DNA from: Salinirubellus salinus
GTDB lineage: Archaea > Halobacteriota > Halobacteria > Halobacteriales > Haloarculaceae
Direction: 5' to 3'
DNA: 64,000 bases
NCBI RefSeq assembly: GCF_025231485.1
Contig: NZ_CP104003.1
Coordinates: 930,001-994,000, forward strand
Part shown: one piece after another, positions 11,365-19,271 of the stretch
Layout of the letters: the number at the start of each line of letters is the position of its first letter
Position numbering within the stretch: the stretch's first letter is position 1
Program-made: the position numbers and the translations under genes
The notes under the pieces: model-generated
The model's input: the letters and a program-made list of their open reading frames with translations, nothing else
What the model was told of the DNA's origin: nothing
Database searches by the model: none

Positions 11365-12366
11365 CTACTCAACCGTGGAGTAACGTCGCGCCTTCCCCTC
11401 GCCCTCTGCGGTGACGAGGTTGTACCGACGCATCTTCCGGAGGTAGTTGCGGAGCGTGCGCTCTGCCCGCGGCTCGTCCACCGCCTCGCGGTACGCCTCG
11501 TAGAGCGCGTCCGGGCGGACGCCGTCCCGCTCGGTGATGAGGTCGTACACCACGCGCTGGTGCGGGGTGAGCTTCTCGAGGCTCTGCTGGCGGATCTTGG
11601 ACTTCGCTTCCGGGGCGGCCTCGCGGAGCATCGCGTCGGTGATGCGGGCCGCTCCCTCCCGGTCGGCGGCCTCGGCGGCCGCACGGAGCGTACCGATGGC
11701 CACGCGTGCGTCGCCGGCGGCCGCGTCCGCGACCCACCTGAGCTGTTCGTTCGTGATGGCATCCTCTCGGAGACCCCACCGCACGCGGTCTTCGAGGATG
11801 GCAACCAGCTCGTCCACGCCGTAGCGATCGAACCGGATGTGGTGGGCGGTCTTGAGGCGGCTGGCAACGCGCTCCTCGAGCGGCGCGTACAGTGCCTCCT
11901 CGGCGTTGGCGATCAGGACGACGGAGAGCCCGCGCGTGCGGTGGAGGTCGTACAGGACGCCCTTCTCCTCCAGTTGGTCGACCTCGTCGAGGATGGCAAC
12001 GTACGGCGTGTCTAGGTTCTCCCGCAGGCGGTCAAGCAGGGAGTCGCGGGGCGTGGACTGGCGGTGGACGTCGTACGCCTCGCCGATGCCCTCTAGGAGG
12101 CGGTAGAGCGTCTTGTACCGGGTGTAGGCGTCCCAGCAGTTGACGTACTGGACGGTGGCGTCGGTCTCCCGCTGGAGGCGGTCGCCGACGTGCCGCGCGA
12201 TACAGGTCTTCCCGGTGCCGGACGGGCCGGTGAGCAGGGCGGGATCGGCGTGGCGACCGTCGAGGAGCGGGTCAAGCGAGCTGGTGAGCGCGTCCACCTC
12301 ACCCTCTCGGTGCCGCACGTCTCCGGGCACGAACGCGGGCTCCAACGGCCGGGGGTCGACAATCAT
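11365..12366 (-). CDS. Orc1/Cdc6-like AAA+ ATPase
   Basis: A 333-residue protein with the standard Orc1/Cdc6 layout. The entry motif is PAFVPGDVRHREGEVDAL, Walker A is TGPSGTGKT (residues 46-54), Walker B is VAILDEVDQL (about 123-132), then come sensor regions and a C-terminal winged helix (LTPHQRVVYDLI to RRYNLVTAEGEGKARRYSTV). I start it at ATG 12364-12366 (MIVDPRPLEP), the normal family N-terminus. It is one of the many accessory Orc/Cdc6 paralogues of haloarchaea, often left by plasmids or integrated elements. It is divergent from the DUF499 operon. It may initiate replication of a former replicon, or act as an ATPase in the neighbouring defence operon; no origin repeats were convincing. 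Confidence 0.85.
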   Translation of the reverse strand: MIVDPRPLEPAFVPGDVRHREGEVDALTSSLDPLLDGRHADPALLTGPSGTGKTCIARHVGDRLQRETDATVQYVNCWDAYTRYKTLYRLLEGIGEAYDVHRQSTPRDSLLDRLRENLDTPYVAILDEVDQLEEKGVLYDLHRTRGLSVVLIANAEEALYAPLEERVASRLKTAHHIRFDRYGVDELVAILEDRVRWGLREDAITNEQLRWVADAAAGDARVAIGTLRAAAEAADREGAARITDAMLREAAPEAKSKIRQQSLEKLTPHQRVVYDLITERDGVRPDALYEAYREAVDEPRAERTLRNYLRKMRRYNLVTAEGEGKARRYSTVE

Positions 12367-12480
12367 ACGCGTCGGGCCCGGCAGCGACCGTATTAGTTGT
12401 GAGGGGGTGACATCCGGGTTTCCGATACGATTCGCGACGCTCCAAATCGGTTCTCCGGCAGAGGACAATTCGTTGCGTGG

Positions 12481-12570: not shown

Positions 12571-15300
12571 ATGACAAGCAGGGTAATCAGCGATTACGTC
12601 ACGCCAAGCGACGAGATCCTCGTCGACGGAGAGATCACCACGCGCGATCTCCTCGACGAGGTCGACCTCTACAACCTCTATGACGACGGCGACGTCCCCG
12701 AGAAGGATGCCGACCGCATCCTCGGTATCACCTACCCGACGCGGACGCTCCGCACGGTCATCGAGCGCACCACCGAGAAGCTCGCGCCCGCCGACCCACT
12801 CGACGACGGAGCGCACGTCATCGCCGGCGGGTACGGCACCGGGAAGAGCCACGTCGGCCTCGTTCTCTACCATCTCCTGAACGATCCGGAGCGGGGCCGC
12901 GAGTGGCTTGCCGCGAACGACATCGACGCTCCGCTCCCGGACGAGAGCCGCGTGGCCGCCCTCCAGATGCTCAACCTCGACCGCCCAACAGGCGAGACCT
13001 ACGAGCAGCTATGGCGACCCATCTACCGTGAACTCGGCATCGAGGATGAGCTCGACGGCACGGGCGAGGTGCCCTCTGCGTCCGACATCCGCGACGCTCT
13101 CGATGACACCCCGACGCTCCTGTTCATCGACGAGATCGAGCGATGGCTCAACGCCAGTGTCCGCCGGGAGTTCTGGGACGACAACCTCGCGTTCCTCCAG
13201 AACCTGATGGAGGCGGCGGGGCGGAAGGATACGCCACTCGTCACGTTCGTCTCCCTGCTGTATGACGATGCTGAGGTACAGGAGGTCGCCGAGCGGACGA
13301 ACCCGTTCATCCACAACCTGACCGCCAGGCGCGAGGAGAAGATCCAGTTCATCACGCACCGACTCGTCGGGTCTAGAGACGACCCGAAGGGAATTGAGAG
13401 GGTCGTCAGCGACTACGTTGAGGCCTACCGGGGAAGCGAACTCGTGGACATCGACGACTATCAGGGGCTCTCCGACCGCATCGATCGCTACTATCCGTTC
13501 CACCCTGACACGCTCGACCTGTTGATGCGGAAGTTCACCAACGCACGGTCGAGTGACGCCCGGAGCCTGCTGGACTTCCTCACCCGCGTGTTTGCCGACA
13601 ACTACGATGCGGTCGACCTGATCCTGACCGGTGACGTCGATGTCAACCGACACATCGACCGACTCTCCGCTCTCGATGGTGAGCTGCTCCCGTCGAAGTA
13701 CGGCGACGATCGGGAACGCCTCCAGAACGATGACGGCTCCTTCGATCCGCACGTCGAGGGGCTGCTGAACACCGTGCTGCTCCACAGCCTCACCGCCGCC
13801 GGTGAGGAGGGGGCCAACCGGCACCAGATGATCATGGGTGGCCTCCGTCCGGGCATCAACAGCCACGAGATCATCCAGACGTTCACCAACGAGGTGGCAG
13901 GTTACGCGTGGCACATCCACCGCCTCAACGGCGAGTTCTCCTTCGACGTGGACGAGAACCCGGCCGCTCGCATCGAGAAGAAAGCCGAGGACGTCCACCG
14001 GAAGGAGGCCGTCCACCGTATCGAGAACCTCGTACTGGAGGAGCTGTTCGGCGGCCGTGAGAACGTCCACGTCTGGGGGCCGATCAACACCGAGCAGCAG
14101 ATCGACGACAACAGGTCGTTCAAGATTCTGGTGCGGCTCGACTACCAGCGTACCTACGGGAAGGACTTCGCCGAGTTCGTCGATGGTCGTGAGTTCCCGA
14201 ACACGATGGTCGTGGTCGCGCCGGACGCGGACGTCCAGTCCAACACGGGCATCATCAAGATGGCCAAGAACGTCGTGGCCGGCGAACAGCTCCGCGACGA
14301 CGGTGGCGACGTTCCTGACGGGTTCGACGACATCCACCAGCAGAACCACGACAACCTCAGGGAGCGCGTGCGCGACAAGTTCGGCAACGTCCACATCAGC
14401 ACCGAGCGTAAGGGGGAGGTGCGACTCGTACCCTCCACGCTCTCGGCACGCGACGGAGAGGACTTCTACGAGGCGACCGTCCGCACCGTCACGCCCGACG
14501 AGAGCGACATCAGCAAGGCGGTCAGGGAGATTCTCGCCGACCGGGCAGAGAGCGGACTCGAGTACCGGTACCTCCTGAACGACTTCTACCGCGATGTGGG
14601 CACACCCACGCTGGTGGACAAGGAGACCTTCGAGACGACGATCAAGGATCTCTGTGCCGACGGCGTCATCAGCGTCGGCGGCACCATCGACTCGCGGCCA
14701 TCCAGCATCGGCAGCAACTCGACGGTCATCCACGGTGACTTCGTCGCCGCGACTCCGACCGACACCGACGATACGGACGAGTTCGGCGGAGCCGACACGC
14801 GGGACGCGCCCGAAACCCCGACTGGGGGCAAGGTAGAGGATGAGGGCATGGCAGAGTCCGACGGTGGTTCGACCACCACGCTCGGTGGTACGGAGGTCAC
14901 CGACGGGCCGGCCGACTCGACTGATGGCCCCGAGGTCAAGACGGGTGACGGGTCGGCTACGGAGGAGCCATCAACGGTGACGTTCCCCGCGATGCCCCCG
15001 CTGAAAGCGGACAACAAATTCTCCCTCGTCGACAAGCTGGAGCGAAGGATGGGAGCCGACTGGGAGGTACACCATCTGACGCTCAAAATCGAAGCGTCGC
15101 TTTCGGACGATGACCTGGGGGAAATCGGTCTCGCGGGCTACTCGGAGCTGGCCGACCGAACAGAGGTGGACGAGGAGCTAACGATGGACGCCAGCGACGC
15201 CCCGCTCTCGAAGCGACGCGTTTTGGACATCGTAGAGGACGTCAGCGTCCCACGGGTCGCCACCCTCTCTATCCGCCTAGAGGTGATGAAACATGAGTAG
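12571..15300 (+). CDS. DUF499-type P-loop ATPase of a BREX-like operon
   Basis: A 909-residue soluble ATPase. The P-loop is GGYGTGKSH (residues 86-94) and Walker B is LLFIDEIERW (about 183-192). Later parts include the arginine-rich ARREEKIQFITHRLV and the DUF499-type middle (GRENVHVWGPINTEQQIDDN). Residues about 730-805 form a Thr/Asp/Gly-rich disordered linker before a C-terminal domain. This is the COG1483/DUF499 family, functionally comparable to BrxC/PglY and repeatedly found next to DUF1156 methyltransferases in predicted defence operons. The stop overlaps the next ATG (genes overlap 15293-15300). In the operon it probably supplies the motor or assembly step that targets unmodified DNA; this is inferred from BREX. 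Confidence 0.82.
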   Translation: MTSRVISDYVTPSDEILVDGEITTRDLLDEVDLYNLYDDGDVPEKDADRILGITYPTRTLRTVIERTTEKLAPADPLDDGAHVIAGGYGTGKSHVGLVLYHLLNDPERGREWLAANDIDAPLPDESRVAALQMLNLDRPTGETYEQLWRPIYRELGIEDELDGTGEVPSASDIRDALDDTPTLLFIDEIERWLNASVRREFWDDNLAFLQNLMEAAGRKDTPLVTFVSLLYDDAEVQEVAERTNPFIHNLTARREEKIQFITHRLVGSRDDPKGIERVVSDYVEAYRGSELVDIDDYQGLSDRIDRYYPFHPDTLDLLMRKFTNARSSDARSLLDFLTRVFADNYDAVDLILTGDVDVNRHIDRLSALDGELLPSKYGDDRERLQNDDGSFDPHVEGLLNTVLLHSLTAAGEEGANRHQMIMGGLRPGINSHEIIQTFTNEVAGYAWHIHRLNGEFSFDVDENPAARIEKKAEDVHRKEAVHRIENLVLEELFGGRENVHVWGPINTEQQIDDNRSFKILVRLDYQRTYGKDFAEFVDGREFPNTMVVVAPDADVQSNTGIIKMAKNVVAGEQLRDDGGDVPDGFDDIHQQNHDNLRERVRDKFGNVHISTERKGEVRLVPSTLSARDGEDFYEATVRTVTPDESDISKAVREILADRAESGLEYRYLLNDFYRDVGTPTLVDKETFETTIKDLCADGVISVGGTIDSRPSSIGSNSTVIHGDFVAATPTDTDDTDEFGGADTRDAPETPTGGKVEDEGMAESDGGSTTTLGGTEVTDGPADSTDGPEVKTGDGSATEEPSTVTFPAMPPLKADNKFSLVDKLERRMGADWEVHHLTLKIEASLSDDDLGEIGLAGYSELADRTEVDEELTMDASDAPLSKRRVLDIVEDVSVPRVATLSIRLEVMKHE

Positions 15301-16225
15301 GGGCCTCTACGGTATCGACGAGGTGCGTCACCTCGTCAACGACGACCCGTTCGACGCCCTGTTCGAGTGCCTGCGTCGCATCTGGGACGCGGATGATGCC
15401 TTCGAGGCCAAGCAGGTCGCTGACCGGGAGTACCGGACGCGGCTCCTCGAACGAGAGATTTCACGGCAGTACCCCGATCTGTACGACGACTTGGTCGATC
15501 GAGTGGGCGACCATCCGCTGATGGAGCTGACCGACGGCTGCGGCATCATCATGGACGGCATGAGCCTCCGCGAGGGGTTCCGCTTGGCCGCCGACCTCGC
15601 CGAGGAACGGGACTGGACGGTGGAGTACGACTGGGCGGCCTGTGAGGGCCTGCCCACGGAGACGAAGTTCATCGCCCAGCCGTGGTTCAACGCGAACGGC
15701 GGCAAGCAGGCCAGCATGAAACACGACCATGTGGCCTACATCGGTGAACCGGAGGTGCCGCCGCTTCCGGGCACCTCGCCGGAGTACGTCTGGTCGCGCT
15801 TCCCCGACAAGCGACTCCACAACTCGCAGGAGGGCCAGTACACCCTGACGGAGCTCGTCGAGGTGTACGACGAGGCAAAGGAGTTGGTGATCGACATCAT
15901 CGAGGAGAGCGTCCACGACCGGTTCTTGGTGTCGAGCGACCACGGCTACGTGAATTTCAGCGGCAACAACCCCTACCGTCTCGCCGAGGAAGACGAAGCG
16001 ATTCTGAAGGAGAAGTTCAGTGGCCGTTACCGAGAGGTGGAACACAGCGGTCTGCTGCGGAAGCTGGAGCGAGATGGCATCATCCACCGCGCCGGCGGCC
16101 ACTACCTGATTCGAGGCCACCACAGCTGGACGAAGCGTGGTGCGACCTCGCGCATTGATCACGGGGGACTGACCCTCGTAGAGACGATGACTCCCCTACT
16201 GACGGTCGATACGACCGGTGACTGA
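15293..16225 (+). CDS. Minimal PglZ-like (alkaline phosphatase superfamily) protein
   Basis: A 310-residue protein between the DUF499 ATPase and the DUF1156 methyltransferase, overlapping the former by 8 nt and ending 1 nt before the likely ATG of the latter. Residues 84-95 (GIIMDGMSLREG) match the metal-binding Asp (88) and nucleophile position (Ser91) of the phosphatase fold. Residues 213-220 (VSSDHGYV) supply the paired Asp-His metal ligands, and HGGLTLVETMTPLL (290-303) matches the closing His-Gly-Gly-(L/S)-x-x-E motif of PglZ. It is much shorter than PglZ of classical BREX (about 600-900 residues), keeping little beyond the catalytic core. Assignment rests on these three motifs. Confidence 0.7.
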   Translation: MSRGLYGIDEVRHLVNDDPFDALFECLRRIWDADDAFEAKQVADREYRTRLLEREISRQYPDLYDDLVDRVGDHPLMELTDGCGIIMDGMSLREGFRLAADLAEERDWTVEYDWAACEGLPTETKFIAQPWFNANGGKQASMKHDHVAYIGEPEVPPLPGTSPEYVWSRFPDKRLHNSQEGQYTLTELVEVYDEAKELVIDIIEESVHDRFLVSSDHGYVNFSGNNPYRLAEEDEAILKEKFSGRYREVEHSGLLRKLERDGIIHRAGGHYLIRGHHSWTKRGATSRIDHGGLTLVETMTPLLTVDTTGD

Positions 16226-16226
16226 T

Positions 16227-18872
16227 ATGGAGACCTGGAACAAACTACCCCTCGAACTCATCGACGAACTGGCGGAGAAAGAGACCTACCGACGCGACAT
16301 CTACCGGCCCATCTACTCGCTCCACAAGTGGTGGGCACGCCGTCCGGGCTCCACGTTCCGATGCCTCGGCCTCGCCGCACTCAGCGACGACAGTGTCACC
16401 AAGGACGACATTCTTCGAGAGGTGCCTCAGACGGGCACACATGAGGGGCTGTACCTCAATCCAAGCAAAGACAGAATCGACAACGATGCAGTAGTTCTTG
16501 ATCCGTTCGCTGGTGGCGGTACAAGTCTAGTTGAGTTGAATCGACTCGGTGCGGATGTCATCGGGTACGAGCTGAATCCTGTGGCATGGTGGATTCAAAA
16601 GAAGTCGATGGATGAAGTCAATATTGAGGTTCTGAGGTCTGAGTTCGACCGTATAATCCAAGAAACGAGAGAAGAAGTTGCCAACCTCTATACGACGACC
16701 AATCCGCAGACCGGTGAAGAGTGCGAAGTACTCTACTACTTCCAGTCTCAGAAAATTCCGTGCTTGACCTGTGATGAAGAGGTTCAACTCTTCCCGCGTT
16801 ACCAGCTAGCAAAAACAAAGGCGACCCGACCTGGAGCCCTATATTGTCCTAACGAAGAGTGTGACGACCGGGTTATTGAGCTACGTGACAGAAAAAAGGG
16901 TCTTGATGCCGGTGACGAGGTGACCGTCGAGGACGGACAGCCAGTCGAGGTAACTGAAGATGGAAACGAGGTTTGTCCCAGTTGCGGGCACGAGTTCGAT
17001 CCAAACGACGGTAATGCCGGATACGGGAAGTACACATGTTCTAACGGGCACAAGCACGACATCAAGGAAACCCTCCAGCGCCGAGATCGGGCACCTCAGT
17101 TCGAGAGATTCGCCCTCCAGTACGTCGATGCTCGCGGGGAAAAGAAGATAAAACAGTTCGACGAGAGCGATGCTGAGTCTGTCAAAGCTGCCCGAGAGCG
17201 ACTTGAGGATGCCCGAGCAGACCTGCCTATCCCCTCACAAGAGATACCAGAAGGTATGGCGATGACGACTGGCGCGTTGCTAAACTACAACTACACGAGG
17301 TTCAGCGAACTATTTACCGACCGACACCTTCTGACCTTTGGGCTTTTGTTCAGGAAGGCGTGGGCAGTCCGCAGTAACCAGTTTGAGGAAGCCGATGCGC
17401 AGAACATCGCTGAGTTTCTCGTCACAGCCATCTCGAACTGCTTAGAGCGGAACAGCAAACTCTCCATGTGGGACTACGGCGATCAGAAGGGGTTCAATGT
17501 GTTCAAGCGACACGCATTCATCCCACGTGTCCAACCTGTTGAGTCGAATCCACTTAACCACGAAGGAACCGTCGCCTCCCTCCAGAACTTCTTTGATAAG
17601 GTCGAACGAGCTAAGCGATACTGTGAAAGACCGTTCGAGAAGGTCAAGAACCGCCAAAGCGGCTCGGTTGAGCAGTTCTATATCAACTCGGAATCGGTTA
17701 GCGAGTCCCGAGTCGCTGGGCTAAACTGCCAAACAGCAGAACAGCTGTCGGAGTCTGATGAGTCAGTTGATTACGTCATCACGGATCCACCGTATTATGA
17801 TAATGTCCAGTACTCGAAGCTCTCGGACTACTTCTATGTCTGGCTCCGTGAGTGCCTTCAGGATGAGTACGAACAGTTCGAGCCTGAACTAGTTCCGAAG
17901 GCCAGAGAAATCGTCTCCAACCGGAAGTCGGGGAAAGATGAGGAGTTCTTCGTCGAATCTCTGACCAACGTCTTCGAGGAGTCACATCGTGTCCTGAAGC
18001 AGGACGGCGAACTGCTGTTCACCTACCACCACAACGAGAACGAGGCGTGGTCAGTCATTCTCGAGGCGCTGATCAAGAGTGGTTTCACCGTTACTGGAGC
18101 CTATCCCGTCCAGTCGGAGATGCCGAACAGCCCCCACATCAAGGATCTCGACAACGCTGAGTACGACATCCTCGTCTTCGCCAACAAAGACGAGGCTGAC
18201 GAGGAAATCACCCTCTCTGAGTTGCGCAACGAACTCTACTTCGAGGTCGAGGATCTCATCGAAGAGGAGCGTGAGCGTCACGAGAACCTCTCCACGGCCG
18301 ATCTCGGCGTCATCCTCCGCGGGAAGTGTATGTACCACTACTCCAAGCACTACCCCGAGGTGTACGCTGACGGCGAGCAGGTCGGTGTCAAACAGGCACT
18401 CGACACCGTCGACAGCGTCATCGAGCAGGTCGTCGAAACCTCTGTCGACCTCCCCTCCAGCATCGATCCGCTGTCGAGGTCGTTCGCGTGGCTGGTCGAC
18501 CGCCAACCTGTTGAGTTCAACGACCTGAACAAGCACCTGATGGCGAAGGGGCTGAGCATGGAGGATCTCACCGACGAGGCGCTGGTGACGGGAGAGAAGC
18601 CGGAGAAGCGAGCGCAGACAGTCGAGGAGCGGCTGGAACTCATCGAGAAGAAACTCGGTGGATCGAACAACGCCCCCGACCAAGGCGATGACCTGCTCGC
18701 CATCGACAAGGTACAGTACCTCGCGCATCTGTATCGCACAGAGCAGAACACCCTTGAGTACCAGAAAGCCTGGAAGACGCACGACCTCGTGGAGTTGGCA
18801 AAGTTCATCGCCGATGCTACCGGAAATGAAGTCTACGAAAATGCGTTGGAAGCCAACGCGTTAGGGTGGTAA
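16227..18872 (+). CDS. DUF1156-type adenine-specific DNA methyltransferase with Zn ribbons
   Basis: An 881-residue enzyme. The entry motif YSLHKWWARRPGS is typical of DUF1156 (COG1743). The SAM-binding motif is LDPFAGGGTSLVELNRLGAD (about residues 91-110), and the catalytic DPPY box is ITDPPYYDNVQYSKLSDY (Asp520 onward), predicting N6-adenine methylation. Between them sit cysteine clusters (CLTC, CPNEEC, CPSCGHEF, CSNGHKH; about residues 180-280) forming zinc ribbons, probably for target recognition. I start at ATG 16227, one base after the PglZ-like stop; GTG 16218 is possible. Codon use drops to much lower GC3 between about 16,440 and 17,960 and recovers afterwards, suggesting a recombined middle section. 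It should provide self-modification for the operon. Confidence 0.85.
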   Translation: METWNKLPLELIDELAEKETYRRDIYRPIYSLHKWWARRPGSTFRCLGLAALSDDSVTKDDILREVPQTGTHEGLYLNPSKDRIDNDAVVLDPFAGGGTSLVELNRLGADVIGYELNPVAWWIQKKSMDEVNIEVLRSEFDRIIQETREEVANLYTTTNPQTGEECEVLYYFQSQKIPCLTCDEEVQLFPRYQLAKTKATRPGALYCPNEECDDRVIELRDRKKGLDAGDEVTVEDGQPVEVTEDGNEVCPSCGHEFDPNDGNAGYGKYTCSNGHKHDIKETLQRRDRAPQFERFALQYVDARGEKKIKQFDESDAESVKAARERLEDARADLPIPSQEIPEGMAMTTGALLNYNYTRFSELFTDRHLLTFGLLFRKAWAVRSNQFEEADAQNIAEFLVTAISNCLERNSKLSMWDYGDQKGFNVFKRHAFIPRVQPVESNPLNHEGTVASLQNFFDKVERAKRYCERPFEKVKNRQSGSVEQFYINSESVSESRVAGLNCQTAEQLSESDESVDYVITDPPYYDNVQYSKLSDYFYVWLRECLQDEYEQFEPELVPKAREIVSNRKSGKDEEFFVESLTNVFEESHRVLKQDGELLFTYHHNENEAWSVILEALIKSGFTVTGAYPVQSEMPNSPHIKDLDNAEYDILVFANKDEADEEITLSELRNELYFEVEDLIEEERERHENLSTADLGVILRGKCMYHYSKHYPEVYADGEQVGVKQALDTVDSVIEQVVETSVDLPSSIDPLSRSFAWLVDRQPVEFNDLNKHLMAKGLSMEDLTDEALVTGEKPEKRAQTVEERLELIEKKLGGSNNAPDQGDDLLAIDKVQYLAHLYRTEQNTLEYQKAWKTHDLVELAKFIADATGNEVYENALEANALGW

Positions 18873-18878
18873 TTGGAT

Positions 18879-19271
18879 ATGACACTTCGACCTGTCTACA
18901 ACGTCGTGACAGAGCCCGAGGAGGACGACCTCCCCGAGTACACGGCGCTCGCGTTCTTCCGAGCGTGTGCGGCCGACGAGGAGCTGCCGACCCGACTGAC
19001 GGTCACCGATCTTGACCAGTTCCTCTATCGCGCAGTCACGGACGAGCGGACGGCGGTCATTTCCGAGCTCCACCACGTCCTGCGACAGACCGATTCTATC
19101 CGGCCCCACTCGGTGGTACAGTTCGTGGTCGACGGCCGGTTGTTCGACGAGGAGATCGTCCGGTTGGGCGTGCCGACCGGGCGAGACAGCTACGAGGACG
19201 TCGCCATCGACGAGTTGTTCGTGGCTCCGCTCGAGCGTGAGGGCGCGACCCACTACGTGGCTCGGAAGTAG
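18879..19271 (+). CDS. Small acidic protein at the end of the BREX-like operon
   Basis: A 130-residue acidic protein from ATG 18879 (MTLRPVYNVV), 6 nt after the methyltransferase stop, so almost certainly co-transcribed. It has no Cys, membrane helix or P-loop. It reads as a mixed alpha/beta domain (LTVTDLDQFLYRAVTDERTA, then ALEREGATHYV-like end). I recognise no family. Its fixed position suggests an accessory or inhibitor subunit of the DUF499-PglZ-methyltransferase system; this is inference from operon order only. Confidence 0.7.
   Translation: MTLRPVYNVVTEPEEDDLPEYTALAFFRACAADEELPTRLTVTDLDQFLYRAVTDERTAVISELHHVLRQTDSIRPHSVVQFVVDGRLFDEEIVRLGVPTGRDSYEDVAIDELFVAPLEREGATHYVARK

What the first reader, a model, noticed from the sequence alone, without database searches (positions are those of the whole stretch)
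12571..19271. Stripped-down BREX-like operon: DUF499 ATPase, minimal PglZ-like protein, DUF1156 methyltransferase, small unknown
Seen: four co-directional, overlapping or abutting genes. The second (310 aa) has GIIMDGMSLREG, VSSDHGYV and HGGLTLVETMTPLL, matching catalytic elements of the PglZ/alkaline phosphatase fold but at half or less the usual size. Known: PglZ is the hallmark of BREX; DUF499 plus DUF1156 is a separately noted defence pairing. Inference: a minimal BREX relative with an unconventional methyltransferase and no helicase or nuclease in the operon.
Basis: partly seen in the sequence, partly recalled or inferred. Interest (0 to 1): 0.82.

Follow-up and report, generated by a model that had tools for sequence, protein, structure and literature searches.

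The report
Helicase-free BREX-related defence cassette in haloarchaea
This is an intact four-gene antiviral-type cassette that recurs across salt-loving archaea; it is a slimmed-down version, without the helicase, of a BREX-related system catalogued in January 2026, and its small size could make it a good place to test which parts of BREX mark DNA and which attack it.

Summary
Observation confirmed. Window 12571-19271 encodes a DUF499/BrxC-like ATPase, a 310-aa stand-alone PglZ, a DUF1156 adenine methyltransferase and a ~130-aa protein (P4), in one tightly packed operon. The PglZ call holds by fold (top matches PorX and BREX PglZ), by profile, and by an intact set of catalytic motifs. The four genes recur together, in this order, in all 26 PglZ-positive haloarchaeal genomes examined (21 genera) and some other archaea, amid unrelated flanks, so the operon is neither a remnant nor a chance cluster.

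Most of the layout is already catalogued. The "Type-3 BREX-Related (BR)" system (Rakesh & Krishnan, NAR 2026) is DUF499 + N6-MTase + Snf2 helicase + stand-alone PglZ + iSTAND. Bacterial loci and two methanogen-class archaeal loci seen here keep this order and end with the helicase. The haloarchaeal cassettes never have it. A helicase elsewhere in the genome is no commoner in carriers (13/23) than in controls (14/29). P4 occupies the iSTAND position.

Verdict: a helicase-free archaeal variant of Type-3 BR. Its four genes match the four roles (BrxB, BrxC, BrxX, PglZ) that E. coli BREX needs for methylation. PglZ is the only encoded candidate effector. The function is inferred, not shown.

The parts
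12571..15300 (+). DUF499 / BrxC-like AAA+ ATPase (909 aa)
   Evidence: NCBIfam DUF499_antiphage E=4e-16, PADLOC DUF499/HmaC/SspC/BrxC matches; Walker A and B intact
12826..12849 (+). Walker A motif GGYGTGKS (codons 86-93)
13117..13137 (+). Walker B motif LLFIDEI (codons 183-189)
15293..16225 (+). Stand-alone PglZ phosphodiesterase/nuclease domain (310 aa)
   Evidence: AlphaFold model matches PorX and BREX PglZ; family profile matches 9nv3_C and 9zn5_B
15554..15556 (+). PglZ D88, predicted metal ligand, in MDGMSLRE
   Evidence: invariant in 17 archaeal homologues and four bacterial ones
15662..15664 (+). PglZ T124 in LPTET, predicted nucleophile
   Evidence: invariant; aligns with the LPSYT threonine of BREX PglZ, 203 residues before its HGG histidine, the same spacing as E. 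fergusonii T538-H741
15806..15820 (+). PglZ D172xxxH176, predicted metal-binding motif
   Evidence: D172 invariant; position 176 is H in the window and bacterial copies, E in most other haloarchaeal copies
15938..15949 (+). PglZ D216-H217-G-Y motif
   Evidence: invariant
16160..16168 (+). PglZ H290-G-G, predicted metal ligand, counterpart of H741
   Evidence: invariant; aligned with HGG of BREX PglZ
16218..18872 (+). DUF1156 N6-adenine DNA methyltransferase (884 aa) with a zinc-ribbon insert
   Evidence: Pfam DUF1156 and N6_N4_Mtase over cut-off; HmaB E=3e-45
16500..16523 (+). MTase motif I DPFAGGGT
17784..17795 (+). MTase motif IV DPPY, typical of N6-adenine methyltransferases
18879..19271 (+). 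P4, ~130-aa small component, likely counterpart of the Type-3 BR iSTAND (BrxB/BrxF-like) protein
   Evidence: conserved fourth gene in every complete locus; homologue sits between MTase and Snf2 helicase in L142

Best explanation
The operon is an intact, horizontally spread, helicase-free archaeal variant of the Type-3 BREX-Related (BR) defence system. Proposed mechanism: the DUF499 ATPase (BrxC counterpart), stand-alone PglZ and P4 (iSTAND/BrxB counterpart) form a core complex with the DUF1156 methyltransferase. That complex methylates an adenine in a specific motif of host DNA. On unmethylated incoming virus or plasmid DNA, the ATP-driven complex recognises the sites and licenses PglZ, a two-metal phosphodiesterase, to nick or cut DNA or otherwise block replication, without the Snf2 helicase that other Type-3 BR systems carry. 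Shown here: gene content, conservation, PglZ homology with an intact active site, MTase motifs, and absence of the helicase in cis. Inferred: complex formation, methylation, PglZ as effector, and antiviral function.
For: Conserved four-gene block with unrelated flanks. PglZ fold and profile matches with intact catalytic motifs. Same gene order plus a terminal Snf2 helicase in bacterial loci and in archaeal L142 and L143. P4 homologue between MTase and helicase in L142. Published Type-3 BR definition. In E. coli BREX, brxB, brxC, brxX and brxZ are each needed for methylation, while brxA and brxL are not (PMC6326788). BrxB-BrxC-PglZ form a core complex (PMC13326643), and PglZ is a metal-dependent nuclease (PMC12205998). 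A helicase in trans is not enriched in carriers: 13/23 vs 14/29, Fisher p=0.59.
Against: Antiviral activity, methylation and nuclease activity are untested for any haloarchaeal member. P4's homology to the bacterial ~165-aa proteins is only marginal (hhalign P about 0.02), and its model has no significant PDB match, so iSTAND identity rests mainly on position. In E. coli, brxL is needed for protection, so a core without an extra factor might only methylate. Catalytic-dead PglZ in E. fergusonii loses about 3 logs of defence yet remains partly active.
Confidence: 0.62

Rival explanations
1. Modification-only or regulatory module: the four genes form the methylation-competent core of BREX without a restriction arm, so the cassette marks DNA (protecting its own mobile element, or immunising against other systems) and does not restrict.
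For: The four roles equal those needed for methylation in E. coli BREX, while brxL, the protection factor, is dispensable for methylation (PMC6326788). No helicase, BrxL or canonical nuclease is in the operon.
Against: PglZ keeps every catalytic motif in all homologues, although PglZ nuclease activity is reported not to contribute to methylation in E. fergusonii (section heading seen). That conservation suggests the active site is used for something beyond methylation.
Confidence: 0.2
2. The cassette works with a helicase supplied in trans, for example the Snf2 helicase of the Type-2 BR-like loci on contig C2 of the same genome.
For: The window genome carries two near-identical copies of a DUF499-MTase-helicase locus on C2. 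Most Type-3 BR systems are described as encoding the helicase in cis.
Against: 10 of 23 cassette genomes have no related helicase at E<=1e-20, among them seven halophile genomes at least 96% complete; the frequency matches controls.
Confidence: 0.1
3. Decayed remnant of a five-gene Type-3 BR system that has lost its helicase.
For: Bacterial and some archaeal relatives have the helicase as last gene. The ISH3-like transposase lies downstream.
Against: All four genes are intact and motif-conserved across 21 genera, with the same boundary everywhere and unrelated flanks. In the window a convergent HxlR-type gene lies between the operon and the transposase.
Confidence: 0.04
4. Nucleotide-based immunity: PglZ acts as a phosphodiesterase on cyclic or linear nucleotides, depleting or reading a signal, rather than as a DNA nuclease.
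For: PorX and E. fergusonii PglZ cleave cyclic and linear oligonucleotides (PMC12205998; PMC12839542). The PglZ here is closest in size to the bare domain and lacks the extra domains of BREX PglZ.
Against: No nucleotide cyclase or nucleotide-gated effector in the operon. The linked methyltransferase and DUF499 ATPase point to DNA.
Confidence: 0.12

Closest known systems
Type-3 BREX-Related (BR) system (Rakesh & Krishnan 2026, PMC12839542)
   Same: DUF499 ATPase, stand-alone active PglZ, DUF1156 N6-MTase, a small gene in the iSTAND position, no canonical nuclease; same gene order as bacterial examples
   Different: No BrxHII-like Snf2 helicase in the haloarchaeal cassettes, in cis or consistently in trans; the small protein is ~130 aa and only marginally similar to the bacterial ~165-aa one
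Type I BREX (BrxABC-PglX-PglZ-BrxL)
   Same: Counterparts of the ATPase, PglZ, methyltransferase and probably BrxB
   Different: DUF499 rather than DUF6079 BrxC; PglZ is 310 aa rather than ~850-880; DUF1156-type MTase; no BrxA and no BrxL
Type-1 and Type-2 BR / Hma systems (HmaABC)
   Same: DUF499 (HmaC) and DUF1156 MTase (HmaB) relatives
   Different: Hma has a helicase-nuclease (HmaA) and no PglZ
PorX-type PglZ domain
   Same: Fold and catalytic motifs
   Different: PorX is a response regulator of type IX secretion; no MTase or DUF499 partners

Membership tests
Type-3 BR system | DUF499 AAA+ ATPase | tested here: met
   DUF499_antiphage E=4e-16, Walker A/B intact; Pfam DUF499 just below its curated cut-off
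Type-3 BR system | N6-MTase with DUF1156 domain | tested here: met
   Pfam DUF1156 and N6_N4_Mtase over cut-off, DPPY motif
Type-3 BR system | Active PglZ as stand-alone domain | tested here: met
   fold, profile and motif evidence; enzymatic activity itself not testable here
Type-3 BR system | BrxHII-like Snf2 helicase in the core locus | tested here: not met
   none in the window or within the fetched flanks of 26 haloarchaeal loci, except a 446-aa SNF2-like C-terminal piece ~4 kb away in one genome
Type-3 BR system | iSTAND component (reported in 82% of taxa) | tested here: inconclusive
   P4 has the right position, and a homologue lies between MTase and helicase in L142; profile similarity to bacterial counterparts P=0.02; no significant fold match
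Type-3 BR system | DUF499 belongs to the Type-3 clade of the published phylogeny | not tested
BREX (types 1-6) | BrxC of DUF6079 type | tested here: not met
   DUF6079 22.3 bits, under its cut-off; best specific model is DUF499
BREX (types 1-6) | Full-length multi-domain PglZ | tested here: not met
   310 aa, domain only; matches the C-terminal part of 741- to 855-position PglZ models
BREX (types 1-6) | Motif-specific methylation and phage exclusion | not testable with these tools
   needs methylome sequencing and challenge assays
Hma / Type-1 and Type-2 BR | Helicase-nuclease (HmaA) partner and no PglZ | tested here: not met
   PglZ present, HmaA absent from the operon

The most novel reading that the evidence does not exclude
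A distinct, stable helicase-free lineage of BR systems in which a bare 300-320-aa PglZ domain is the sole effector of a complete four-protein restriction-modification machine, making it the smallest working BREX-type system known.
Probability: 0.35. Interest if true: 0.68.

Novelty: new variant of a known kind. Interest (0 to 1): 0.48.

Why it matters
What blocks the virus in BREX, and which proteins are needed to methylate and which to restrict, is still debated. This cassette encodes counterparts of the four components needed for methylation in E. coli BREX and nothing else: no BrxL, no BrxA, no helicase. Testing it in a tractable haloarchaeon would show directly whether PglZ alone suffices as effector. 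It also qualifies the published statement that Type-3 BR systems retain the helicase: in haloarchaea they do not.

Tried and rejected
PglZ by single-sequence Pfam: no hit in the window's own genome; resolved with a family profile and structure. Viral contigs: no relative. Operon truncated by the ISH3 transposase: rejected, because relatives with other flanks end at the same gene and a convergent gene intervenes. P4 missing in three group-B loci (L040, L060, L065): a gene-caller artefact; P4 is present. PglZ fused to DUF499 in L038: an artefact of an in-frame upstream extension. The 314-aa protein in the Halorientalis locus as a PglZ: not one, judged from its sequence. Homology of P4 with bacterial ~165-aa proteins by profile comparison: much the same stretch aligned in three of four comparisons but never convincingly significant. 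Centring a genome search on a bacterial plasmid: not possible.
Full report
Setting. The window lies on the 4.13-Mb contig of a haloarchaeal genome held as two contigs (G000:C1:930001-994000). The operon sits in a stretch of lower G+C (57-66% in 4-kb bins from about 4 to 24 kb, against 67-72% downstream). The methyltransferase gene is the lowest at 54.5%. It is flanked by a divergent Orc1/Cdc6 gene (11365-12468) and, downstream, by a convergent HxlR-like gene and an ISH3-like transposase. This suggests horizontal acquisition (inference).

Observation. The four genes are as described: DUF499 ATPase, 310-aa PglZ-like protein, DUF1156 methyltransferase and a small protein, with 8-base overlaps at the first two junctions. 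The real start of the small gene is probably the ATG at 18879, where its homologues start.

Is the second protein a PglZ? Yes. The AlphaFold model (pLDDT 68, pTM 0.71, so only moderate quality) has 13 PDB matches with E below 0.001: twelve PorX chains, which carry a PglZ domain, and one BREX PglZ. A profile of 17 homologues finds solved BREX PglZ chains 9nv3_C (E=5e-7) and 9zn5_B (E=3e-4). Invariant residues include D88, S91, T124, D172, D216, H217 and H290, and all of these are shared with the bacterial stand-alone PglZ proteins. In 9nv3_C the aligned threonine and histidine are 203 residues apart, the same spacing as T538 and H741, the residues mutated in E. fergusonii PglZ. T124 and H290 are therefore the likely counterparts; the threonine part of that alignment scores low by itself, so this is an inference.

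Is the operon a conserved unit? Yes. A profile search of 392 genomes of the order found PglZ relatives in 26, from 21 of 95 genera. All 26 loci were inspected and each has the order DUF499-PglZ-MTase-P4. Eighteen named genomes gave the same picture. The neighbouring genes differ from locus to locus. Relatives outside the haloarchaea have the same block in L092 and L093; L090 and L091 are cut by contig ends. In L144 two genes are inserted between PglZ and the MTase.

The helicase. Bacterial plasmid loci (Aminobacter, Ensifer, Tenderia, Klebsiella) have DUF499, PglZ, MTase, a ~165-aa protein and an SNF2 protein, in that order; the Klebsiella locus has two extra genes (SIR2, ATPase) inserted. In the haloarchaeal loci, and in L092, L093 and L144, no such gene is present; the nearest related piece in the haloarchaea is a 446-aa fragment about 4 kb away in one genome. 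A relative of the helicase anywhere in the genome occurs in 13 of 23 cassette carriers and 14 of 29 non-carriers (Fisher p=0.59). Seven halophile carriers at least 96% complete have none. So the helicase is not part of this variant and is not generally supplied in trans. On the MTase tree the helicase-bearing L142 is sister to helicase-less L144, and both are sister to the window's group. Several losses or a regain are therefore needed; deep branches are not firm enough to choose.

The small protein. P4 is homologous to a ~131-aa protein in other haloarchaeal DUF499/DUF1156/SNF2 loci that lack PglZ (hhalign probability 97.6%). L142 has a P4 homologue (E=5e-30) exactly between MTase and helicase. 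Sequence comparison between the P4 family and the bacterial proteins mostly aligns the same stretch (SxxxFLR...LP...VxGLxxxL) but is not convincing (P about 0.02; P=0.1 in another register). P4's model finds no significant PDB match. I treat it as a probable iSTAND counterpart, not a proven one.

Comparison with the known. Type-3 BR systems (569 taxa, 134 archaea) are described as having the three BR core components, including a BrxHII-like helicase, plus stand-alone PglZ and, in 82%, an iSTAND (PMC12839542). The window operon matches in the tested respects except the helicase; the iSTAND match is inconclusive. I found no description of a helicase-less archaeal form in the passages of the main text that I read or searched; its supplement could not be read here. 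PADLOC names only distant single components of this operon.

Mechanism. In E. coli BREX, deleting brxB, brxC or brxZ abolishes methylation as well as protection, brxA is dispensable, and brxL is needed only for protection (PMC6326788). BrxB, BrxC and PglZ form a core complex (PMC13326643). PglZ is a metal-dependent nuclease whose T538A mutation costs about 3 logs of defence (PMC12205998). The cassette encodes counterparts of exactly the methylation-competent set, if P4 is the BrxB counterpart. The most economical reading is a minimal modification-restriction machine with PglZ as the only encoded effector. The main rival is a modification-only module. Neither has been tested, and I give the full functional reading about 0.6.

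Verdict. What appears new is a widespread, helicase-free archaeal variant with a defined four-gene boundary.

Noticed in passing
L142:10936-11628, L144:5863-6555, L093:231-923, L091:5359-6069: In four non-halophile archaeal cassettes a ~230-aa RadC-like gene (named from its sequence, not by a family search) sits directly upstream of DUF499; no homologue was found in the haloarchaeal loci.
   Followed up: partly
L047 and L048 (G000:C2:38000-57900 and 231000-249332): The window genome's second contig carries an 18.3-kb stretch twice at 99.9% identity with a DUF499-MTase-helicase (Type-2 BR-like) locus; in one copy DUF499 is split in two. It could be a real duplication or a contig-end artefact.
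   Followed up: partly
L106:8156-18320 and L102:8962-18351 (Halorientalis litorea plasmid): Elaborate haloarchaeal locus with three DUF1156 methyltransferases, DUF499, a P4-like protein, SNF2, a PD-(D/E)XK nuclease and a UvrD helicase but no recognised PglZ; P4-like genes occur on 12 haloarchaeal plasmid records.
   Followed up: partly
L101:7581-20144 (Klebsiella pneumoniae plasmid): A Type-3 BR locus recurs on dozens of Klebsiella and related plasmids, with SIR2 and ATPase genes inserted after PglZ; the annotated DUF499 (705 aa) lacks the Walker A motif, perhaps a mis-set start.
   Followed up: partly
L112:13137-13991 and the 284-aa gene at the same place in L042-L044 and L046: One subgroup of the cassettes is followed by a 284-aa gene, annotated as a DNA adenine methylase in Haloplanus rubicundus, a possible fifth member.
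   Followed up: no
window 16218-18872: The methyltransferase gene has 54.5% G+C against about 63% for its operon partners and 67% for the window, and looks the most conserved of the four proteins (up to 69-70% identity, against about 50% for PglZ and 40% for P4).
   Followed up: no
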